Shown: piece after piece, positions 1,056 through 13,562 of the stretch | Layout of the letters: every line of letters begins with the position of its first letter | How positions within the stretch are numbered: position 1 is the first letter of the stretch | Notes under the pieces: model-generated | Told to the model about the DNA's origin: nothing | What the model saw: the letters and a program-made list of their open reading frames with translations, nothing else | Databases searched by the model: none | Made by a program: the position numbers and the translations under genes | Origin: Corynebacterium urinipleomorphum | Lineage (GTDB): Bacteria; Actinomycetota; Actinomycetes; Mycobacteriales; Mycobacteriaceae | DNA: 64,000 nt | Direction of reading: 5' to 3' | NCBI RefSeq assembly: GCF_900155535.1 | Contig: NZ_LT706963.1 | Location: 465,234 to 529,233, forward strand

Positions 1056-1933
1056 CCGGTCTCTCCCAGACGCCCGAGGGAGCGCCGCAGGGCACGGTCC
1101 ACGACGTCGCGCAGATCCCGCTTTCCGTCGGCCCCGCCCCGTTGCGGCGGCACCACACACCGCAGCCGCAGGTGGAAGGCCGTCGGCATCGGGAACGCGG
1201 GCAGGCCCCCGAGTTGATCGGGGGTGAGCAGCACCATCGCGCCTCCGGCACCGAGCCGCGCGGCCAGGGCCGTCCGGTCCGGCCACAGCTCGGTCTCCGG
1301 GTGCAAGCCGATGGTGAAGAAGGCGTCGGCCAGGCGTCCGGCGGCCGCCGGGCTGACGGCGGCGGTGTTGTCCAGCAGGGTGTGTCCCCGCAACGCCGCC
1401 CAGGTCGCGGGCTTTTCGGCGGGCCCCGCGAGCAGCCGGGGAACCTCGTGCAGCTGCCCGCGAGACAACTCACCCGTCGGCGCCGGGTCCTCGATGACGG
1501 CACAGTCCAGACGGCCCTCGCCCACCCGGGTGACCAGCTGCGACACCTCGGCCGTGTGCACACTGACCCGGCCGACGTCCCGCAACGCGGAGGTGAGGTC
1601 GAAGGCGATGCCCGGCGGCACCGAGGGGGCCAGCCCCACGCGTACCTCGGCCCCGGCGTCGGTGATGGCGTGGGCCATGCTCTGCAGTTCCGTGGCGTCC
1701 CGGACCAGAATCCGGGCCTGCGGGAGCAGGGACCGGCCGGCCTCGGTGAGGGTGGCACCGGTGGCGGAGCGGCGGATCAGGTCGAGGCCGAGATTCGACT
1801 CCAGACGTTTCAGCCCCTGGGACACGGGGGACTGGGTCAGCCTCAGCCGCTCCGCGGCACCGGTGACGCTGCCCTCCTCGGCCACGGCGACGAAGTACTC
1901 CCAGTGCCGGAGGGAATCCGGTCGAGTTGTCAT
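1052..1933 (-). CDS. LysR-family transcriptional regulator
   Basis: 293 residues. The N-terminus (about residues 8-65, containing VTGAAERLRLTQSPVSQGLK) is a typical LysR winged helix-turn-helix. A weaker periplasmic-binding-like effector domain follows. It lies first in a two-gene unit with the downstream serine hydrolase, overlapping by ATGA. LysR regulators usually sit divergent from their targets, but here the obvious partner is co-directional, which suggests joint transcription. The effector is unknown. Confidence 0.85.
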   Translation of the reverse strand: MTTRPDSLRHWEYFVAVAEEGSVTGAAERLRLTQSPVSQGLKRLESNLGLDLIRRSATGATLTEAGRSLLPQARILVRDATELQSMAHAITDAGAEVRVGLAPSVPPGIAFDLTSALRDVGRVSVHTAEVSQLVTRVGEGRLDCAVIEDPAPTGELSRGQLHEVPRLLAGPAEKPATWAALRGHTLLDNTAAVSPAAAGRLADAFFTIGLHPETELWPDRTALAARLGAGGAMVLLTPDQLGGLPAFPMPTAFHLRLRCVVPPQRGGADGKRDLRDVVDRALRRSLGRLGETG

Positions 1934-2455
1934 GTGCCCCGAGCCTAGTGGAGGGGACTCTGACGAGCTGAGCGAGGTACGGGGAACAAGGGCTCACCGG
2001 GCCTGTCGTGCAGCGGATTGCCGTGGTGGGTCCAATTCAGGCGAAGATGCGTATGACAGCCGAACCGGCACCGTCCCGGGCCAGGGGAGAGACCCCTTTT
2101 CCCACGGCACCAGAACTGATCTGTGCGAGGGGGAATCGGCGAACTTCAGCTACCTGACCGCCACCCTGGATGCGTCCATCCGTGGAGCGGGACCCGCGGT
2201 CGGGGAGTGGCCGGGCAGAATCCACCGGGTGGAACCCCGGTCCCCTTCGAGGACGACCCCGACCTGACGGACAAGCGGTTTACGGGCAGTGGAGGAGATC
2301 CTCGACTGAGAGCCGCACGCCCGAGGTGGTCCGGGAGATGCGGGGCAATCCGGAAGAACTCGAACGGCTCGGCATTGAGGCGAGCAACGAACGACAACGC
2401 GGCGGGAAACCACAGGTTTCTCGCCGCGTTCGGCCTGGTTCAGACCAACTACCGG
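1934..2455. other. gene-poor stretch, no recognised gene
   Basis: About 520 bases between the LysR start and the 3' end of the FMN reductase. Several short overlapping open frames exist on both strands, but none has a credible ribosome binding site or a family I recognise. It presumably holds the promoter of the LysR unit on the minus strand. It may contain degraded coding sequence. Confidence 0.4.
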
Positions 2456-3014
2456 TCAGCCGCGCAGCGTCTTGAGCGCCTCCGACCAGGCGGTGACCTG
2501 GTTGAACACATCGGTGAGAGCGCCGGTGGCGCCTTCGGTCGGGGTGAACTTCGACATGTCCTCGAAGTCGGAGCTGAAGGGCAGGAACACCTGGGCGCGG
2601 ACGTCGGCCATCTGCAGTTCCGCGGCGATCAGCCGCCACGCCTCCACGGAGCGGGTGCCGCCGGCGCTGCCGTAGCTGACGAAGCCGATGGCCTTGTTGT
2701 TCCACTCCGCGTACAGGAGGTCCACGGCGTTCTTCAGTGCGGCGGGCACGGAGTGGTTGTACTCCGGGGTGACGAAGACGAAGCCGTCGTAGGAGGCGAT
2801 CTTCTCGGCCCAGGCCTTGGTGTGATCCTTCGAGTACTGGCCCATGGCCGGGGGCATGGGCTCATCCAGCAGGGGCAGGTTCTGGTCGGGCGATGTCCAC
2901 GAGCTCGAACTCGGCGCCGCCGTGCTGCTGCGCGTGCTCGTGCACCCATTCGGCGACCTGGGGTGCCAGGCGGTTGGGGCGGGTGCTGCCGACGATGATG
3001 GCGATGCGGGTCAT
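2456..3014 (-). pseudogene. NAD(P)H-dependent FMN reductase, single frameshift
   Basis: The start (MTRIAIIVGSTRPNR) has a strong Shine-Dalgarno (GGAGGT) and the flavodoxin-like phosphate-loop motif GSTRPNR. The frame fails after about 41 codons at a G/C run near 2887-2891. Removing one base restores D-Q-N-L-P-L-L-D-E-P and joins it to a 133-codon frame with the family motif TPEYNHSVPAALKNAVD. The corrected protein would be about 185 residues, normal for flavin reductases of the NADPH_dep_FMN_red family. It may be a true pseudogene or a base-calling error in a homopolymer. The IS481 remnant lies immediately upstream on the same strand. Confidence 0.75.
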
Positions 3015-3061
3015 GGTTTTACCTCCGAATAGTGGTGGTGGTGACATTCCCGTCTCCCACG

Positions 3062-3600
3062 CTAGCTGTACTTCCCCGTGACGTTGTGAACGCGTTGCAG
3101 GGGGAGTTAACCCTCCGATAGCAGTGTGAGCCCGGTTGCAATTGTAATCGTGGATGAACCCCGCATACGCTGCCTGCCGGGCCTTCTCACTGTCATAAGC
3201 CCTCACATAGGCCCACTCCTGCATCAACGTGCGATTAAACCTCTCGACCTTGCCATTGGTTTGCGGACGATACGGCCTGGTGAACTTATGGCCGATACCG
3301 TCACCAAGCGCGTCAGCAAACACATGCGAACGGTAGCAACCCCCGTTATCCGTCATCACCTGTTTGACGGTGAACCCGCCTCCAGCGAAAAAGGCCCTCG
3401 CCCGCGTCCAGAACCCGGCAGCAGTATCTTTCCGCTCGTCTCCCAGGATCTCCGAGTACACCAACCGTGAATGGTCATCGACGGCATGATGCAGGTAGGA
3501 ATATCCCCGCCCGGGTTTCGCCCCGGCCTTGTACAGCGCGTCTCGTCGACGCCCGGCCGCCCGGTCCTGGGCAGAACCGCGCTGATGAACGCGCTGGTTC
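3062..3600 (-). pseudogene. IS481-family transposase, C-terminal fragment
   Basis: About 170 residues of a DDE (rve) integrase core: YLHHAVDDHSRLVYSE, VMTDNGGCYRS (second catalytic Asp), YRPQTNGKVERFNRTL (catalytic Glu region) and the family ending AIGGLTPPATR. The N-terminal HTH half is missing; the frame runs into IS3-like sequence near 3600. A one-base shift around 3088-3095 breaks the last codons. In the other frame the expected tail V-H-N-V-T-G-K-Y-S and a stop at 3062-3064 appear. It is therefore non-functional as read. The DTR or TIR ends are not recognisable. Confidence 0.8.
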
Positions 3601-3647
3601 GCCCCGGGTTTAATGGAGGGTAAGAAATTGGAAAAGGAAACCTTCAC

Positions 3648-4088
3648 ATGCCCGTCAGGTACACCCCGGAGCTCAAGCAGCGTGCTGTAGAACTCGTGCT
3701 CCACGCCCAGGCCGACCCGGCAACCGCCCACGGCGCGGTGACCCGCATCGCCAATGAGCTCGGCCTCAGCAAAGAATCCCTCCGTGTCTGGGTCCGCAAC
3801 CACAATACGGCGCCGACAGCCCCGCTGAATCCCTCGATCTGGAAGCAGAAAACCGCAGACTACGAGTCGAACTCGCGGAAGTAAAACGTGCCAACGACAT
3901 CCTCAAGAAGGCCTCGGCTTTTTCGCGGCGGAGCTCGACCGCCTCCAGAAATAGTCGTCCGGTTCATCGATACCTACCGCGACGAGTTCGGGGTCGAGCC
4001 CATCATCCGCGTCCTGGCCACCACCAGCGCGAAGATTGCCCTGAGCACCTACTACGCCTACAAATCCCGCCCCCCAGCAGCTGCGTAA
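3648..4088 (+). pseudogene. IS3-family transposase remnant (orfA plus start of orfB)
   Basis: It begins as an IS3 OrfA HTH protein (MPVRYTPELKQRAVELVLHA, then ELGLSKESLRVWVRNH). The frame is lost at a CCCC run near 3820-3823. In a second frame the OrfA leucine-zipper part continues (LEAENRRLRVELAEVKRAND, then ILKKASAF). A second loss at TTTTT (3919-3923) precedes the normal end FFAAELDRLQK. An OrfB start (VVRFIDTYRDEFGVEPIIRV) stops after about 45 residues near 4080, where non-IS sequence begins. The element is truncated and dead. It lies head to head with the IS481 fragment, which it may have interrupted. Confidence 0.8.
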
Positions 4089-4788: not shown

Positions 4789-5352
4789 GTGCCTATCACG
4801 GTCGAGAGGCTATCTCTTCCGCGTCGCACCCATCTGCGGCACGCGGATCACCCGATGGTCGCGGTCTACGGCGGGTCGACCGATGCCGCGAAGGCCGCGC
4901 TCGCGGATACCGCGACGACCCTGACTGGGCGTCTGCCCGGCCCCGAAATCACTGCCGAACAGCTCGCCGCGCGCAACTGGTGGACGGGACCGGATATTTA
5001 CGTGGTCGTCGACGATCTCGAACTCGTTGGTGAAGAGAATCTCCGCCCGTTGCTGCCGCTCATCCCGCATGCGCACGACATTGGCCTGCACATCATCGCC
5101 GCCCGCAAATTCGGCGGCACGGGCCGTGCTCTGCTCGCACCGTTCCTCAGCGCTCTCAAGGACCAACTGCCCGACGTCGTGCTCTTCTCCGGCACCAAAG
5201 ACGAAGGCGCTCTCTTCGGCGTCCGCCCGCTGCCGTTGCGCTCCGGCCGCGGCATCTTCGTCCGCGATAACGAGCAGATCGGCCCGATCCACATCGCAGA
5301 AAACACGCTTATCGACGTCCCATCCGCACCCCAATCCGAGGAGACCCCATGA
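4789..5352 (+). pseudogene. type VII secretion ATPase EccC, C-terminal remnant
   Basis: 187 residues from GTG. Residues about 45-175 match the end of the third FtsK/SpoIIIE-like ATPase domain of EccC: NWWTGPDIYVVVDDLELVG (Walker B-like hhhhDD), LRPLLPLIPHAHDIGLHIIA, ARKFGGTGRALLAPFLSALK and the late LFSGTKDEGALFG segment. Full EccC proteins exceed 1000 residues and have membrane segments plus three ATPase domains. None of that is present upstream. GGAGG four bases before the GTG means the stump could still be translated. The next gene overlaps its stop by ATGA, so the original operon order is kept. Confidence 0.75.
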
Positions 5353-6386
5353 CCACCGCCCACGTCACCGGCGGCCGCTCATCCGTTGCCGCCGACACGT
5401 CACCAGAACCGGGAGCTAACGCCCTTCTCACCGTCACCGTCGATGATGAATGCACTGTCTTTTCCGGCCTGGCCAATGTGCACCGTTACGACAAGCCGTC
5501 CGCCGGCGAGATCGTCAGTTATGTCCGCAGTGTGCTCGGCGAACACCCGAAGTGGACACCCGTGCATCTCGTCGCGACTGATGCGACACTCAAGCAGCTC
5601 ATCTGCGCATTTGGCGATTACGAAGTCGAGCTGACCTGCGAGTCGCTGGACGATGCCGATGACACTGACACCCACCCTTCGACTGACGAGTGGGAGGAGA
5701 TCCGGGAGATCCCCATCCGTCGTCCAGCGCTGGAACCGCGTCGGCAGGAACGCTTCGGCCGATCCGGCTATGCGCTTGTCGGCGCGGTCGGTCTGGTTGC
5801 CGCGGTCTGCGCCGTAGCGATCTGGTTCGTCGCCGGACGGGGAAGCGATGAGGAAAGAGATGAGAATAGTGGGACAGACATCGCAGTCTCCGGTGATTCG
5901 GCAGGTGTGGCGTCGCCGACGGACAGCGTCGGTGATGATCCCGGTGAGGTGCCCGCGTCTGATCCGGATCGTGCTGAACCGAAAGTAGAAAAGGTCGTCC
6001 TCGAACAAGACGGTTTGAGCGTGGAATTGCCCGTCGGCTTCCGTCTCGAGCCCGACGGCGACATGTGGCGCGCGACCGGACCTGACCCGGATTTCCGCCT
6101 GCAGCTCGCGGTGGACCCGCTCTACGGCGTCCCGCCCGAAGACATCATGCGGCAGGTGAAAAAGGACATTGAGGAGGATCCGGAACTGCGCCAGACCGAA
6201 AGCGACGAGGTCAGCGTCCGCTACGAGCATGCGCTCCCGGACGGATCCCACGCATTGTGGTCCACCTGGACCGACTGTGATGTGCAGATTTCCATTGGCT
6301 GCCACACACGTACCGCGCCCACCACTGTCCAATTAGCCACGTGCACTATGGCCAACGAATCCGCTCGCTTCACCCCGCCCGGCTGA
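5349..6386 (+). CDS. type VII secretion-associated membrane protein (Rv3446c-like)
   Basis: 345 residues. The N-terminal third is a predicted soluble domain, followed by one membrane segment (about residues 137-160, YALVGAVGLVAAVCAVAIWF), an acidic Ser/Asp-rich linker and a C-terminal domain with VVLEQDGLSVELPVGFRLEP. This layout and position, directly after eccC and before two WXG100 genes and rplM, match the Rv3446c-type T7SS-associated family of ESX-4 loci. The frame ends in a Pro-Gly tail shortly before an ECF-like promoter. Its role is unknown; with EccC broken it may be non-functional or serve another EccC. Confidence 0.7.
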   Translation: MTTAHVTGGRSSVAADTSPEPGANALLTVTVDDECTVFSGLANVHRYDKPSAGEIVSYVRSVLGEHPKWTPVHLVATDATLKQLICAFGDYEVELTCESLDDADDTDTHPSTDEWEEIREIPIRRPALEPRRQERFGRSGYALVGAVGLVAAVCAVAIWFVAGRGSDEERDENSGTDIAVSGDSAGVASPTDSVGDDPGEVPASDPDRAEPKVEKVVLEQDGLSVELPVGFRLEPDGDMWRATGPDPDFRLQLAVDPLYGVPPEDIMRQVKKDIEEDPELRQTESDEVSVRYEHALPDGSHALWSTWTDCDVQISIGCHTRTAPTTVQLATCTMANESARFTPPG

Positions 6387-6526: not shown

Positions 6527-6850
6527 ATGAGCACCGCTCAGTTCCGTACAGAAGCCGACGTCATGCGCAACGCGGCGAACAACGTAGACGACACCAACGA
6601 CTCGGTCAACGCCGAGCTCAACCGCCTGCAGGATGTCGCGCAGTCCACGCGCGATTACTGGTCCGGCAGCGCGCAGGCCAGCTTCGACGATTTGATGGTC
6701 CGCTTCGATGACGCGGAGCGCCGTCTTGGCGAAGCACTCGGCGACATCGCGTCGAATATCCGCGACAACGCCAGCAACTTCGAAGACGTCGACGCAACGA
6801 ATTCCGATGCCTTCGCAAATATCGCACCAGCCGGCGGCCTTGCGCTGTAG
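6527..6850 (+). CDS. WXG100 (ESAT-6-like) protein, first of pair
   Basis: 107 residues. It is a helical hairpin with the W-x-G turn at YWSGSAQASFDDL. Family length is about 100 residues. The start is supported by GGGGAGG shortly upstream. In ESX-4 loci this position holds an EsxU/EsxT-type pair. WXG100 proteins form dimers and leave the cell through the EccC-driven type VII apparatus. The C-terminal tail (ANIAPAGGLAL) lacks an obvious YxxxD/E export signal. Without an intact EccC next door, export would depend on another copy. Confidence 0.85.
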   Translation: MSTAQFRTEADVMRNAANNVDDTNDSVNAELNRLQDVAQSTRDYWSGSAQASFDDLMVRFDDAERRLGEALGDIASNIRDNASNFEDVDATNSDAFANIAPAGGLAL

Positions 6851-6952: not shown

Positions 6953-7240
6953 GTGACAGTGATCAAGTACGGCTTCGGTTCACTCGCCGACGCTGCATCC
7001 GACATCGAGACCTCGTCCCGCAATATCGGCAGCCAGCTGGAGGACCTTAAAGACCAGCTCAAGCCGATGGTTTCCTCTTGGGAAGGCGAAGCAGCTGACC
7101 GCTACCAGGAGCACCAGAACAAGTGGGACACCGCGGCGCAGGACCTCAACGACATCCTTTCGGCCATCGGCCGCGCCGTCGAGGACGGCAACGACCGCAT
7201 GCAGTCCGTCAACACCGCCGCCGCGAATAGCTGGGGGTAA
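6953..7240 (+). CDS. WXG100 (ESAT-6-like) protein, second of pair
   Basis: 95 residues with the W-x-G turn at SSWEGEAADRYQEHQNKWD. A YQEHQ stretch lies in the second helix. The start codon is GTG preceded by CAGGGAGAA. It lies about 100 bases after the first WXG100 gene and probably shares its promoter, forming the usual heterodimer pair. It ends in N-S-W-G. It is most likely the EsxT/EsxU equivalent of an ESX-4 system. Confidence 0.85.
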   Translation: MTVIKYGFGSLADAASDIETSSRNIGSQLEDLKDQLKPMVSSWEGEAADRYQEHQNKWDTAAQDLNDILSAIGRAVEDGNDRMQSVNTAAANSWG

Positions 7241-8692: not shown

Positions 8693-8820
8693 GAAATCGC
8701 TTGCGCGATATGGTTTCGCCGCTGCTCCCCGTTGTTTGGGGGCGGCGGCGTTCCGCATTTTCGGGCAGGTTGTGAACCCGCCCCGAGGCGGCATGGTCAG
8801 CTACGGCATAATTGTCTTTC

Positions 8821-10164
8821 ATGACTCGACTGTTTGGAACTGATGGTGTCCGCGGACTGGCCAATGACGCTCTGACTGCTCCCTTGGCCATGAAATTAGG
8901 TCAGGCAGCTGCGATTGTGCTGACGCAGAACAAACGTTCAGAACAGCGGCGGACCACCGCGATCATCGGGCGGGATCCGCGTGTGTCGGGCGAGATGCTC
9001 GCTGCGGCGATGGCGGCCGGCATGGCGTCGAAGGGCGTGGACGTGCTGCGCGTGGGTGTCATTCCCACCCCCGGCCTGGCGTTCCTCACCGACGATTACG
9101 GTGCCGACATCGGTGTGATGATCTCCGCGTCGCACAACCCGATGCCCGACAACGGCATCAAGTTCTTCAGCGCCGGAGGCAAGAAGCTTGCCGACGCTGT
9201 GGAGGACGAGATTGAACAAGCCATGGCCGACCTGGAAGAAGGTGGCCCGGCCGGCACTGGCATCGGCCGGATTATCGAGGAATCGCCAGACGCTCATGTC
9301 CGCTATCTCGAGCACCTCGCGGAGTCTGTGACCACGCCCCTGGACGGCATCAAGGTCGTGGTGGATTGCGCGAACGGTGCGGCGTCGAAAATTGCTCCCG
9401 CCGCCTACGCCGCCGCTGGCGCAGAGGTCATCCCGATCTTCAATGCGCCGAATGCGTACAACATCAACGACAACTGCGGTTCCACGCACATTGAGCAGAT
9501 CCAGAAGGCCGTCGTGGAGCACGGAGCAGATCTGGGTCTGGCTCACGACGGCGATGCCGATCGGTGCCTAGCCGTTGATGCTGAGGGCAATATCGTCGAC
9601 GGTGATCAGATCATGGCGGTGTTGGCGTTGGGGATGAAAGAGAAGGCGTCGTTACGCGAAAATACTCTGGTGGCGACTGTGATGAGCAACTTGGGCTTGA
9701 AGCTGGCCATGCAACGCGAAGGCATCACGGTCCGCGAGACGAAGGTCGGCGACCGCTACGTGCTTGAGGAGCTTAACGCGGGGGAATTCTCCCTCGGCGG
9801 GGAGCAATCGGGCCACATCGTTGTGCCCTCGCGTGCGACGACGGGGGACGGAACGTTATCCGGCCTGCTCATCATGGAACGCATGGCTGAGACAGGAAAG
9901 ACACTGCAGGAGCTCGCCTCCGTGATGACGGTGCTCCCGCAGGTGCTCATCAACGTGCCAGTATCGGATAAATCCCTGATTCTGGAAAGCGCCGAAGTGA
10001 AGAATGCTATCGCTGAGGCGGAAGAAGAACTCGGTGAGGACGGGCGTGTGCTGCTGCGCCCGTCCGGAACCGAAGAACTGTTTCGTGTCATGGTGGAGGC
10101 GGCGGAGAAGGAGCATGCCCGCAAGGTTGCGGGGCGTCTCGCTGCGGTAGTCGCCGCGGCGTAG
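8821..10164 (+). CDS. glmM: phosphoglucosamine mutase
   Basis: 447 residues. It interconverts glucosamine-6-phosphate and glucosamine-1-phosphate for UDP-GlcNAc and peptidoglycan. The phosphoserine loop is [18 protein letters not shown], the metal loop is AHDGDADRC, and the C-terminal phosphate loop is [17 protein letters not shown] chose the ATG giving [12 protein letters not shown], as in other GlmM proteins, over an upstream TTG. glmS, which makes its substrate, lies about 3.4 kb downstream. Confidence 0.96.
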
Positions 10165-10211: not shown

Positions 10212-10273
10212 GTCTGTGGAAGATGAAGGCTGCCGCTTTTTGCGGCTTTAACCACTCGGGGGAAGTGATCATT

Positions 10274-10576
10274 TTGGCCGACCAGTTGCATGTTGATCCG
10301 GGGGAACTCAGGGCACTTGTGAGTACGCGAATCACCAGTTACAACGAGGCGATCGAGAGGCTCCAGGAGGCCCAACCTGAAATCGACCACGCTGCTTTCG
10401 GGGAGGGATTCGCCGATCACGGTGCGGACATCGCGGCGGCGGTGAGCCGTGTCCATGAACAGACTCGCGACAGGCTGCACGCGCGTGTGGGACAGTTCGA
10501 GGAAATCCTGCGGCTTATCGCGGATGTGGATACCGCCGACCACGAGACTGCTGCGGGGTTGAGCCGTCATGTCTAA
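10274..10576 (+). CDS. EspC-like helical protein, possible T7SS substrate
   Basis: 100 residues from TTG. GGGGGAA lies nine bases upstream; an in-frame GTG nearer to it is too close, and an ATG 51 bases upstream would give a longer version. The sequence (VDPGELRALVSTRITSYNEA, later FADHGADIAAAVSRVHEQ) is two amphipathic helices with the spacing of EspC / WXG100-like secretion targets, but has no W-x-G. Its stop overlaps the next start by eight bases. It is the first gene of a three-gene unit sharing a promoter type with the WXG100 pair. The function is inferred. Confidence 0.6.
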   Translation: MADQLHVDPGELRALVSTRITSYNEAIERLQEAQPEIDHAAFGEGFADHGADIAAAVSRVHEQTRDRLHARVGQFEEILRLIADVDTADHETAAGLSRHV

Positions 10577-12266
10577 CACGAAACTGAAAGAGGGCCTCGG
10601 GGAGATCGCCCGTGAAGTTGCAGTGTTGCCGGGTGTGACCTCGGCGGATGCCTCATTTGTGGGGGAGAAGGTTCTGACTATCTCCGCGAAGATCGACAAA
10701 ACGAATGGGTTGGATCCCTCGGGGTTGCCGCAGCAGGTGGCTACCGTCAACCCCACTGTGAACCCCACGATGAGCCCAGTCGTGGGCAAACTCGGACGGG
10801 GCGTGGGGCCAGGCGGAATTCTCGGACTTCTGTCGGCGGTGCCGTTCGTGGCCGAGTTGGCCTCGGGTGTTGCGGATTGGTTAGGAAACATCGGCATCGC
10901 CGACCACGAGCAAAAGCTCGATGAAGAGCAGAGCAACCATTCCGACACATTGGATAACCTGCAGGAGCAATCTTCCGGCTGCGCCGACTCCGTCAAGGAG
11001 ATCGATGAGACAGCAGACCGCGGGATGCAGGAAATCGTCGATGTTCTGCTCGGACTCATCGCGTCTTTGAAAAACTGCTCTCTCGTGCAGCTCGGATCAG
11101 CCGCCCTCAGCTCCATTTGTGAAGGCTTGTCCTCCATCGAGAGCACTGTTGACGACCGAAACAAGTCCATCGGCGAATGCTTCGACGGTTTGAAAAAGCT
11201 GTGCGAGGTTGCCGGCGGCAATCAGCCTCCTGCGCCGAAGCAGTACTGTCCACCGAGCGAGACTTCCACCCCGCACCCAGAGTGCCCACCTGAACCGGCA
11301 ACGCCATCAGCGACACCGCCGCCGGCGCCAGCACCGACGCCGTCCCCAGCTCCAACTCCGAGTCCGGCACCTGCTCCCGCGCCCGAGGCATGCCCGACAA
11401 CACCTGCCCAAGCGCCTCAATCTCAGCCGCAACCACCCGCTCCAGCGCCTACACCAGCGCCCTCGCCTGGGGCAGTACCTCAACCTGTTACTGAGTGCCC
11501 GCCCACGCCCACGCCGGCGCCAGCATCTAGCCCGCTGCCTTCGGCGGAGCTCACTCCTGCCAAGACTCCGTCCACGCCACAGGCGACGGTTCCCGCGACG
11601 ACAGGTTCCGGGCTGAACATCAACATAGCTATCGACGCGAATCTGGAGTGCCCGCCGCCGGCGGTGACCGAGATCCCGGCCACGCCGACGACTCCTGCGA
11701 ACTGCCCTGAACCGGCCGTCCCCGCCCCGCCGGCGGTTCCGCCTGTTGGGCCTGCGGGTGAATGCATAGTCCAGCAAATGGTTGCAGGTATCGAGGCCTT
11801 CGGCCAGTCTGTCGCCGAATGCCTGTCGCAGATCGAGTGCCCAGTTGAGCCGGTTGCGGATTGTCCACCGCCTGCACCCGCTCCGGAGCCTGAACCAATA
11901 CCGGTCTCTGAACCCGAGTGCCCGGAGCCGCAGCCTGAACCGGCTCCTAAACCCGAACCCGAGTGCCCGGAGGAGGCCCCTGCTTCGAAGCCGGAACCTG
12001 AGCCTGTTGCTAAGCCGGAGTGCCCGGATGGCACGATCGCTCCGCCTCCTGAATTAGCTGAGGTGAAGGAGCCGCCGCCACCACCGAAGAAGGGGCTAGT
12101 GGCGCCAATGGCCGCTGACGGAATGGTGGCGCCACCGGAAGCAGCTCCGGCACCAGAGCCAGCCCCGGCACCGGCGGGCGAGGGCGCGCCTGCGGATGCG
12201 CCGGCAGAGAAGCAACCCGATAACCACGACGACCAGCAGCGGGCACGCAAGACAGGGGGATGGTAA
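10569..12266 (+). CDS. Cys-rich, Pro/Ala-rich repeat protein of unknown function
   Basis: 565 residues, not a family I recognise. Residues 1-60 are a mixed alpha/beta start, and about 70-110 hold a Gly-rich hydrophobic stretch (GGILGLLSAVPFVAELASG). A helical part with spaced cysteines reaches about residue 215. The rest is a Pro/Ala/Glu-rich tail with repeated ECP, CPP and CPE units (about a dozen Cys in all there). A short Cys-containing helical island (GECIVQQMVAGIEAFGQS) interrupts it. No signal peptide is seen. Abundant evenly spaced cysteines suggest disulfides outside the cytoplasm, so type VII export is a reasonable inference from the neighbouring EspC-like gene. Confidence 0.7.
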   Translation: MSNTKLKEGLGEIAREVAVLPGVTSADASFVGEKVLTISAKIDKTNGLDPSGLPQQVATVNPTVNPTMSPVVGKLGRGVGPGGILGLLSAVPFVAELASGVADWLGNIGIADHEQKLDEEQSNHSDTLDNLQEQSSGCADSVKEIDETADRGMQEIVDVLLGLIASLKNCSLVQLGSAALSSICEGLSSIESTVDDRNKSIGECFDGLKKLCEVAGGNQPPAPKQYCPPSETSTPHPECPPEPATPSATPPPAPAPTPSPAPTPSPAPAPAPEACPTTPAQAPQSQPQPPAPAPTPAPSPGAVPQPVTECPPTPTPAPASSPLPSAELTPAKTPSTPQATVPATTGSGLNINIAIDANLECPPPAVTEIPATPTTPANCPEPAVPAPPAVPPVGPAGECIVQQMVAGIEAFGQSVAECLSQIECPVEPVADCPPPAPAPEPEPIPVSEPECPEPQPEPAPKPEPECPEEAPASKPEPEPVAKPECPDGTIAPPPELAEVKEPPPPPKKGLVAPMAADGMVAPPEAAPAPEPAPAPAGEGAPADAPAEKQPDNHDDQQRARKTGGW

Positions 12267-12514
12267 TGGATTTCCAGCAGTTCGCTGAACAATTCAAGGA
12301 ACGCACCGCACGGCGGATGACCGAGTTCGAAAGAGTGCTGCAAGAAAGCCAAAGGCAGATGGAGCAGGCGGCGCGCCAGCAAGCGCTGGCGAAGGAAATG
12401 AATATACAGAAACCGCCCGCGCAGACACCTCGCGGAACATACCGCGGTGTCAGGCACGGGCGGGTGCAGGGGGTTCTCCGGAGGGAAGGGCCCACCGGGC
12501 AGCAGCGAAGTTAG
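12266..12514 (+). CDS. small charged helical protein
   Basis: 82 residues from the ATG that overlaps the previous stop (TAATG); another ATG lies two codons upstream. The first 50 residues form a long charged amphipathic helix (FQQFAEQFKERTARRMTEFE, then QQALAKEMN), and the tail is basic and Gly/Arg-rich. No known domain. It is the third gene of the cassette, and tight coupling implies it acts with the Cys/Pro-rich protein, perhaps as a chaperone-like partner (inference). Confidence 0.6.
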   Translation: MDFQQFAEQFKERTARRMTEFERVLQESQRQMEQAARQQALAKEMNIQKPPAQTPRGTYRGVRHGRVQGVLRREGPTGQQRS

Positions 12515-12520
12515 CCTGAG

Positions 12521-13372
12521 CTAGAAGATGCTCTTCACGTCCGAGCGGGCGAAGTCCGCCCGGTCGGCGAGCTCTTTGCCGAAGACGGATTCGACGCCTT
12601 TGCCCTGCGCATCCATCTCGGAGTACGCCGAGTACGACTTGTCGCCGTCCAGCTGGTGCAGCAAGAACCCGGTGAGCAGGCCACGGACCGTCTCTTGGAC
12701 GCTGGCTTTCGAGCGGCCCTGACCAAGCAGGATCTTCTTGAGGTTATCCTCGCTGAACGCCTTCTGGTTTCCGTCTTTCACCGTGCGGTACGCGACGGGA
12801 CCGGACCAGTTGTATGCGAGCCGCGCCGGGTTGCCCGGGTCGAAGATCGCGTCCGCGTCCGCATCAGGGCCGATCACCAGTCCAGGAAGGAACAGGGTGC
12901 GTGCGGCGTTGTCAGCTGACGGAGCCACAGCAGCGGGATAGATCGTTGCAACGGCTTTGACTTTCTCATTGTTCACACTGGTGAGAACTGCGCATCCACC
13001 GCCCATGCCGTGGCCGACCACTCCCAGTTTGCCGGGGGCGACGGTGGTGTTGCCGTTTCCTAGCTTCACACCGGAGAGGATCTGCAGGGCTGTCTCCAGA
13101 TCGGCGGCGAAGCCCGAGTGGTTCGGGTTGAAACCGCGCTCAGTATCGGGAGCAGCGACAGCGATGCCCCAGCTGGCCAGGTGACGCAACGTCTTCTTGT
13201 AATCCTCGGCGCTCTTCATCCAGTCATGCCCGAACGCGACTCCGGGAACAGCTTTCCCGTCGGCCGGAACGTACACCTTGCCGGGGAGGCCGGTGTACCC
13301 GAGGTCTCCCTCCATGACGCGGTGCGGGCCACGCTTGGACAAATCGCTGAGCTTCTTCAACTTCGCAGACAC
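12521..13372 (-). CDS. alpha/beta hydrolase fold protein (dienelactone hydrolase/lipase-like)
   Basis: 283 residues from GTG (VSAKLKKLSDLSKRGPHRV). The fold is supported by GKVYVPADGKAVPGVAFGHDW (oxyanion region), an APDTERGFNPNHSGFAADLE segment and the nucleophile-elbow-like stretch VVGHGMGGGCAVL. The elbow normally reads G-x-S-x-G, but here the serine position is glycine, so classical esterase activity is doubtful. No signal peptide from this start. It lies convergent to the preceding cassette and alone on its strand. Confidence 0.7.
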   Translation of the reverse strand: MSAKLKKLSDLSKRGPHRVMEGDLGYTGLPGKVYVPADGKAVPGVAFGHDWMKSAEDYKKTLRHLASWGIAVAAPDTERGFNPNHSGFAADLETALQILSGVKLGNGNTTVAPGKLGVVGHGMGGGCAVLTSVNNEKVKAVATIYPAAVAPSADNAARTLFLPGLVIGPDADADAIFDPGNPARLAYNWSGPVAYRTVKDGNQKAFSEDNLKKILLGQGRSKASVQETVRGLLTGFLLHQLDGDKSYSAYSEMDAQGKGVESVFGKELADRADFARSDVKSIF

Positions 13373-13562
13373 GTGGATCAGGATACTGCATGGACATAGC
13401 GGGGCGTGGCAGATCACAGGTCATGCGCCCCTAAGGGAGGCCTTCGGCGTTCGTCTCCGCTAGTTCCGGAGCCTGGGAAAGCCATGCGGTTCGCTCGGTC
13501 GAATCGTGTGCGGGGCAAGTTGGCGCGGGGGAGGATTTGGCCTATGCATTATCCTTATCCGC

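What the first reader, a model, noticed from the sequence alone, without database searches (positions are those of the whole stretch)
10274..12514. Three-gene cassette with an unusually Cys-rich, Pro-rich protein and an EspC-like leader gene
The three genes overlap start to stop (8 bases, then TAATG). The middle protein has about a dozen spaced ECP/CPP/CPE units in a Pro/Ala/Glu tail plus cysteines in its helical front, unlike cytoplasmic actinobacterial proteins. There is no signal peptide. The first gene looks like an EspC-type T7SS target. Together this reads as a possible secreted or surface disulfide-rich machine exported by type VII secretion with a small helical helper.
Basis: inference. 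Interest (0 to 1): 0.65.

Follow-up and report, generated by a model that had tools for sequence, protein, structure and literature searches.

The report
ESX-4-linked three-gene envelope-export cassette
Behind the cell-wall gene glmM in nearly all corynebacteria examined, and in most related genera examined, sits an unannotated three-gene unit that looks like an exported protein pair with a small helper of the type VII (ESX-4) secretion system; the corynebacterial version is unusually rich in cysteine, and in this genome the secretion machine itself is broken.

Summary
Three overlapping genes (O1 10274-10576, O2 10569-12266, O3 12260-12514) lie behind glmM. O2 has 18 cysteines in 565 residues, mostly as ECP/CP in a Pro/Ala/Glu tail. 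None passes a Pfam or NCBIfam cut-off. The unit is an old part of the ESX-4/glmM neighbourhood: found in 39 of 40 Corynebacterium loci fetched by glmM position, and as an O2-like gene in 25 of 29 other genera. O1 is a helical hairpin of EspC/WXG100 type; O2 relatives in other genera are WXG100-like. The genes are under purifying selection, and O2 ends in a conserved C-terminus (KxGxW). The M. tuberculosis gene at that place, Rv3439c (Ppr2), was reported to bind the PDZ domain of site-2 protease Rip1. Best reading: O1-O2 is an ESX-4-type export pair acting in the envelope, O3 its partner. Cys-richness is a Corynebacterium trait. Against a strict link: three genomes with a broken or lost secretion ATPase (this one included) keep the unit, and some relatives keep ESX-4 without it. 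Secretion, disulfides and PDZ binding are not shown here. New variant of a known kind.

The parts
10274..10576 (+). O1, about 100 aa, EspC/WXG100-like helical hairpin (alternative start ATG 10223)
10526..10540 (+). O1 end motif V-x3-D at the place of the type VII YxxxD/E signal; acid in 85 of 89 homologues, Tyr mostly replaced by V/I
10569..12266 (+). O2, 565 aa, Cys/Pro-rich
10569..11216 (+). O2 helical N domain (motifs TxGLD, DRNxxIxxC)
   Evidence: AF2 confidence low (pLDDT 56.6)
11217..12029 (+). O2 Pro/Ala/Glu tail with 13 Cys, mostly ECP/CP
12030..12092 (+). O2 conserved block GTIAPPPELAEVKEPPPPPKK
   Evidence: relaxed motif in 34 of 89 homologues
12246..12263 (+). O2 conserved C-terminus RKTGGW
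   Evidence: 29 of 30 loci found by N-domain similarity end in W
12260..12514 (+). O3, 82-84 aa, predicted helix (by eye) plus basic end; most conserved of the three
8812..10164 (+). glmM, upstream neighbour
12521..13417 (-). dienelactone/PETase-like hydrolase, downstream neighbour
6527..6850 (+). EsxU (WXG100)
6953..7240 (+). EsxT (WXG100)
5349..6386 (+). Rv3446c-like T7SS-associated protein
   Evidence: TIGR03931, over cut-off
4789..5352 (+). eccC remnant, C-terminal piece only
   Evidence: TIGR03925, positions 401-562 of 564

Best explanation
The cassette encodes an ESX-4-type substrate pair and its small partner. Inferred sequence of events: O1 (EspC-like hairpin) and the helical N domain of O2 pair in the cytoplasm, as PE/PPE or EsxU/EsxT pairs do; the O1 end ([V/I]xxx[D/E]) serves as the export signal for ESX-4; O3, the slowest-evolving and probably cytosolic member, binds or stabilises the pair. 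Outside the membrane the Pro-rich tail of O2 spans the envelope and its conserved free C-terminus docks on a partner. The best candidate partner is the PDZ domain of the Rip1-like site-2 protease, because Rv3439c (same locus in M. tuberculosis) was reported as Ppr2, a Rip1-PDZ binder. In Corynebacterium the tail gained cysteines, plausibly for crosslinking or metal/redox sensing. Shown here: conservation, layout, O1 fold class and family relation, selection, the C-terminal motif, a PDZ-bearing site-2 protease in this genome. Inferred: pairing, export, O3's role, docking.
For: Layout: O1-O2 pair behind glmM in 96 of 99 Corynebacterium loci examined, 39 of 40 among those fetched by glmM position; profiles trained without those 40 support all 39 (O1 in 34, O2 in 22, O3 in 14, two or more in 24). 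Of the three misses, L134 was recovered by profile, L115's genome has O2-O3 displaced (L183), L180 ends at a contig edge. O2-like gene between glmM and the hydrolase region in 25 of 29 other genera. O1: AF2 hairpin pLDDT 85.9; best Foldseek row a WXG100 protein, though E only 0.31; Corynebacterium against other-genera O1, hhalign 96.3%, E 2e-9; over 10,107 ORFs the O1 profile's non-cassette hits at E<=1 are 32 EsxU plus 18 others, none from three shuffled profiles. O2 of other genera resembles EsxU/EsxT (74% and 66%); O2 N domains match across genera at 51.7%, E 1.5e-4. Locus tags: esxT rv3444c, esxU rv3445c, eccC4 rv3447c (PMC2763215 passages), glmM Rv3441c (PMC3414508 passages), Rv3439c = Ppr2 (PMC6963305 passage). 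Site-2 protease with PDZ in this genome. T7SS-dependent secretion of a WXG100 protein is reported in C. glutamicum (PMC12607788 section 7).
Against: No secretion data. G000, G184 and G068 lack an intact EccC but keep the unit, with no sign of relaxed selection in G000. G243, G293 and G298 have ESX genes elsewhere and no unit behind glmM; G242 has eccC next to glmM and no unit recognised. In G246, G258 and G265 the unit stays with glmM although EccC is on another contig. Window O1 fails Pfam's EspC cut-off; canonical YxxxD/E occurs in 2 of 89 Corynebacterium O1 and 5 of 16 others. EsxU/EsxT profiles do not find Corynebacterium O1 or O2, only four other-genera genes. Corynebacterium O2 shows no WXG100 likeness in hhalign (3% or less). 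The last residue of O2 is hydrophobic in only 13 of 27 other-genera proteins. Rv3439c itself was not aligned to O2.
Confidence: 0.5

Rival explanations
1. A T7SS-independent envelope or cytoplasmic complex tied to the glmM cell-wall locus; the EspC-like hairpin is only an old fold reused as a scaffold.
For: Unit intact in G000, G184 and G068 with a broken or absent ATPase; stays with glmM in G246, G258, G265 while EccC lies on another contig; 26 of 86 O2 tails have a membrane-grade hydrophobic segment (19-mer >1.6) against 2.1 expected from shuffles, so some could insert without ESX-4.
Against: The O1 profile finds EsxU while shuffled profiles find nothing; other-genera O2 are WXG100-like; the eccC pieces left in G000 and G184 are still 86-89% identical to the intact gene of G009, which fits recent loss.
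Confidence: 0.27
2. An accessory part of the ESX-4 machine or conduit (as EspB/EspK are for ESX-1, recalled) rather than a cargo.
For: Widespread in the family and not polymorphic in layout; O3 slow-evolving.
Against: Several genomes have ESX genes without it; O1/O2 evolve about 4-11 times faster in dN than glmM.
Confidence: 0.13
3. A T7SS-delivered antibacterial effector (Gly-rich hydrophobic segment) with O3 as immunity protein.
For: Gly-rich hydrophobic tail segments in a minority of O2; small partner gene.
Against: Near-universal and not polymorphic; segment not membrane-grade in the window protein's tail (0.92); O3 has no membrane segment by eye.
Confidence: 0.05

Closest known systems
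Rv3440c-Rv3439c (Ppr2) of M. tuberculosis
   Same: Same place by locus tag: next to glmM (Rv3441c) beside ESX-4 (esxT rv3444c); Ala/Pro-rich character of Rv3439c is recalled
   Different: Sequence not compared here; Cys-rich tail and KxGxW end are the Corynebacterium form; Ppr2-Rip1 binding known to me only from a review passage
EsxU-EsxT (ESX-4 WXG100 pair)
   Same: Small helical pair at the same locus; O1 profile hits EsxU
   Different: O1 lacks WxG (GxGF instead); O2 is about 5 times longer with a Pro/Cys tail; the reverse profile search does not find O1
EspC / EspC-type targets (PF10824)
   Same: Length, hairpin, register 1-75 against profile 1-76
   Different: Window O1 under the gathering score; Tyr of YxxxD/E mostly V/I
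PE/PPE pairs
   Same: Works like: short hairpin plus longer helical protein with variable tail (chains of PE25-PPE41 entries among the fold rows)
   Different: No PE or PPE family hit
ExsI (Cgl0579) of C. glutamicum
   Same: Reported substrate of the T7SS of that species (PMC12607788)
   Different: A WXG100 protein without cysteine

Membership tests
EspC-type T7SS target (PF10824) | Pfam gathering score | tested here: not met
   Window O1 15.3 of 23.5 bits; 2 of 29 Corynebacterium O1 match at E<=1; 1 of 8 other-genera O1 over the cut-off, 24.7. Not filed as a member
EspC-type T7SS target (PF10824) | helical hairpin of about 100 aa | tested here: met
   AF2 pLDDT 85.9, helices 9-32 and 47-99
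EspC-type T7SS target (PF10824) | C-terminal YxxxD/E export motif | tested here: inconclusive
   Canonical in 2 of 89 and 5 of 16; acid kept in 85 of 89, Tyr position V/I in 59 of 89
WXG100 (PF06013) | WxG turn and family score | tested here: not met
   No hit for O1/O2/O3. W-x-G somewhere in 20 of 25 other-genera O2 (position not filtered)
ESX-4 substrate | gene linkage to ESX-4 | tested here: met
   G009 locus complete; exceptions G243, G293, G298, G242, G246, G258, G265
ESX-4 substrate | EccC-dependent secretion | not testable with these tools
   needs fractionation of an eccC mutant
Rv3439c/Ppr2 orthologue | sequence homology | not tested
   A named M. tuberculosis sequence was not at hand; position by locus tags only
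PDZ ligand | conserved hydrophobic free C-terminus | tested here: inconclusive
   W last in 85 of 89 Corynebacterium O2 (my picker asked for W/F near the end) and in 29 of 30 chosen without that rule, but hydrophobic last residue in only 13 of 27 other-genera O2
YbaB/EspL-like (O3) | profile similarity to YbaB | tested here: inconclusive
   hhalign 0.7% against 13 YbaB-like ORFs picked by motif, at least one of them spurious

The most novel reading that the evidence does not exclude
ESX-4 feeds regulated intramembrane proteolysis: O1-O2 is exported by ESX-4 so that the free C-terminus of O2 (KxGxW) occupies the PDZ domain of the Rip1-like site-2 protease, making O2 an envelope adaptor that gates cleavage of its substrates. 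In Corynebacterium the ECP-rich tail turns it into a redox or metal sensor, which would link ESX-4, Fur-controlled in C. glutamicum (PMC12607788 abstract), to envelope stress signalling.
Probability: 0.12. Interest if true: 0.85.

Novelty: new variant of a known kind. Interest (0 to 1): 0.58.

Why it matters
[quoted passage not shown] This cassette is a widely conserved candidate for which no Pfam or NCBIfam model passed its cut-off. It can be tested directly in the laboratory species C. glutamicum. If the C-terminus of O2 docks on a site-2 protease, two envelope pathways studied apart would be joined.

Tried and rejected
Known-family searches of O1-O3 gave nothing above cut-off. O2 N-domain model: low confidence, and its PDB matches are generic helical rows, not used; no PPE, EspB or LXG row was seen among the 50 shown, which proves nothing. 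O1's VIA rows are led by ESCRT-III Snf7, Z 9.2, within the helical-bundle background. YbaB/EspL idea for O3: no support (only 13 ORFs passed my motif picker and one printed row, L189, is plainly spurious). O3 of Corynebacterium and of other genera are not demonstrably homologous (hhalign 2%): same place only. Cys parity as a disulfide test: 48 of 89 even, chance. Paper searches for the genes showed no description of the cassette in the rows listed; most listings were capped; one search listed human methylation probe names only. PMC10202637 and PMC10166564 held none of the terms I looked for; PMC7771538 only lists Rv3440c as a conserved hypothetical.

Limits of counts. Of the 99 Corynebacterium loci, L004-L033 (30) were chosen by O2 similarity, L123-L142 (20) by an O3 match, L114 and L115 are G011 and G195, L116-L122 (7) are second copies of genomes already in the set, and L143-L182 (40) were fetched by glmM position in genomes whose EccC match was weak: 48 such genomes, 46 with a glmM match, of which G068 was already in hand and G045, G058, G082, G101 and G169 were left out. 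The picker rewarded offsets of -8, -4 and -1 and required W or F near the O2 end, so offset and C-terminal counts are partly selected; the unselected C-terminal figure is 29 of 30. Other-genera units were first read by eye; the profiles were trained on 16 O1 and 20 O2 of them, so only L089, L103, L107, L108, L113 (O2 of the 25) and L215, L221 are independent. The list of 20 C-termini was hand-picked: over the 27 O2, Gly is third from the end in 18 of 27 and the last residue is hydrophobic in 13 of 27. The 239 of 242 scored only two candidates per genome; one search scored all candidates for ten genomes. EccC-less genomes with the unit (3) were met while inspecting, not enumerated.

Full report
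What is there. Three genes run behind glmM (8812-10164): O1 (10274 or 10223 to 10576), O2 (10569-12266) and O3 (12260 or 12266 to 12514), followed by a hydrolase gene on the other strand and glmS. O2 has 18 Cys in 565 residues, with 11 CP and 9 EC pairs in its tail, beyond shuffled tails. No Pfam or NCBIfam model passes its cut-off for any of the three.

How far it reaches. A search with the O2 N domain found relatives in 78 of 242 Corynebacterium genomes (E<=0.01); an O3 profile matched 165 of 242 (E<=0.001). Reading the glmM locus itself goes further. Of 99 loci examined (92 genomes, 7 of them twice), 96 have an O1-O2 pair by my picker. L134 was then found by profile, the genome of L115 (G195) has O2 and O3 several kb further on (L183), and L180 ends at a contig edge with an O1-like ORF. 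Of the 40 loci fetched by glmM position (L143-L182), 39 have it; profiles trained without these 40 support every one of the 39 (O1 in 34, O2 in 22, O3 in 14, two or more in 24). Starts mostly overlap the preceding stop (-8, -4 or -1 for O1/O2 in 84 of 96; -7, -4 or -1 for O2/O3 in 91 of 96, a picker that favours such offsets). In 29 other genera of the family, one genome each, 25 have an O2-like gene behind glmM, 22 of them with an O1 match better than 1e-3 (profiles partly trained on these). L096 is doubtful, L085 and L086 have none, and L097's genome carries the pair next to rplM instead (L215).

What the proteins are. O1 folds as a confident hairpin (pLDDT 85.9, three-sequence alignment). 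Its best Foldseek row is a WXG100 protein but at E 0.31, and hairpins are common, so sequence evidence matters more. The Corynebacterium O1 profile aligns with other-genera O1 at 96.3% probability; five column-shuffled controls give 0.1% or less. Across 10,107 ORFs its non-cassette hits at E<=1 are 32 of the 64 EsxU and 18 others; among the twelve printed, three of the others are other-genera O1 genes and one (in L160) is unidentified; three shuffled profiles gave none. The reverse search is weaker: EsxU and EsxT profiles hit four other-genera cassette genes and no Corynebacterium O1 or O2. One of eight other-genera O1 passes Pfam's EspC cut-off, the window's does not. At the place of the YxxxD/E export signal O1 has a conserved acid (85 of 89) with V or I for the Tyr in 59 of 89; EsxU of the same loci has aromatic-xxx-acid in 50 of 50, EsxT in 1 of 55. 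O2 of other genera resembles EsxU and EsxT (74%, 66%), while Corynebacterium O2 does not; the two O2 sets match at 51.7%. The O2 N-domain model is helical but poor (pLDDT 56.6).

The tail. Corynebacterium O2 has a median 2.8% Cys (89 proteins), other genera 0.72% (20 proteins): the cysteines are a Corynebacterium trait. Tails often contain a hydrophobic segment (26 of 86 above 1.6, 2.1 expected), weak in the window protein's tail (0.92). The last residues are conserved: 29 of 30 O2 loci found by N-domain similarity end in Trp, commonest pattern [KR]-[AST]-G-x-W. In other genera many end AEAGPL or LxxGD; Gly is third from the end in 18 of 27.

Selection. In the six comparisons among five close genomes (G183/G184 counted once), dN/dS is 0.24-0.35 for O1, 0.11-0.25 for the two halves of O2 and 0.06-0.16 for O3. 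O1 and O2 have about 4 to 11 times the dN of glmM, O3 about 1.3 to 3.4 times (several dS values are near saturation).

Link to ESX-4, both ways. In G009 the order is eccB, mycP, eccD, eccC, Rv3446c-like, esxU, esxT, rplM, rpsI, glmM, O1-O2-O3. In M. tuberculosis the tags give the same order: eccB4 rv3450c, eccC4 rv3447c, esxU rv3445c, esxT rv3444c (PMC2763215 passages) and glmM Rv3441c (PMC3414508 passages). But the genome of this window keeps only a mycP piece beside eccB (L083:15717-15929) and an eccC piece (window 4819-5331); the only other TIGR03924 match is an FtsK-like protein that intact genomes have too. G184 has lost the front of eccC next to transposase-like ORFs, and G068 the whole core, while both keep the unit; five genomes searched alongside (G009, G183, G172, G053, G017) score over the cut-off. 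Conversely G243, G293 and G298 have ESX genes elsewhere and nothing behind glmM, G273 has neither EccC nor the unit, G242 has adjacent eccC and no recognised unit, and G246, G258 and G265 have the unit by glmM with EccC on another contig. The eccC pieces in G000 and G184 are still 86-89% identical to the gene of G009, which suggests recent loss; G068 may be older. So the link is real as a neighbourhood and a protein-family relation, but not obligate.

A lead from print. A review passage (PMC6963305) says a two-hybrid screen with the PDZ domain of the site-2 protease Rip1 found Ppr1 (Rv3333c) and Ppr2 (Rv3439c). The original (Schneider 2013) is not held and was not read. An eLife passage repeats that Ppr1 bridges Rip1 to one substrate (PMC9042235). 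Rv3439c is, by tag number, the O2 position. A PDZ domain typically binds a free C-terminus (general knowledge), and O2's C-terminus is its best-conserved tail feature in Corynebacterium. This genome has one M50 protease, and it has a PDZ domain; the other 19 genomes searched also have one M50 match each (PDZ not checked in those). I have not shown that Rv3439c is homologous to O2 by sequence, nor that any O2 binds a PDZ.

Verdict. An overlooked, widespread ESX-4-linked cassette, most likely an export pair plus partner, with a Cys-rich Corynebacterium variant.

Noticed in passing
window 4789-5352; L083:15717-15929: ESX-4 is broken in this genome: only an eccC C-terminal piece and a mycP piece remain, eccD was not found there, and about 8 kb of other genes lie between eccB and the eccC piece. 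An assembly error is not excluded.
   Followed up: yes
window 2862-3803 and 3915-4043: IS481-like transposase ORF (below NCBIfam's cut-off) and an Rfam ALIL pseudoknot just before the eccC piece.
   Followed up: partly
L119:12574-16256 (G184): eccC of G184 lacks its front 430 or so residues; transposase-like ORFs (by eye) follow, and eccB/eccD/mycP are absent from the rest of the fetched stretch.
   Followed up: partly
L140:5898-13556 (G068): Between eccB and rplM the T7SS core is replaced by unrelated ORFs, one McrC-like by eye (10835-12061, untested).
   Followed up: no
G172:C27:138672-140729 and G183:C5:9548-11605: Two close relatives hold a second EccC elsewhere (over the TIGR03924 cut-off), so a second T7SS; not seen in G000, G184 or G009 in that search.
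   Followed up: no
L115, L183 (G195): The cassette is displaced from glmM by several kb of genes that look like a mevalonate pathway (by eye).
   Followed up: partly
O3 of Corynebacterium loci: O3 comes in two main forms, ending VxSVLRR-like (43 of 86) or xIFD-like (20 of 86); the forms seem to go with two T7SS locus types, possibly just clades.
   Followed up: partly
L215 (G255) 1541-3741: In this genome the O1-O2 pair has moved to the other side of rplM, towards the esx genes.
   Followed up: yes
G065: A genome rated 100% complete gave no EccC and no glmM match; reason unknown.
   Followed up: no
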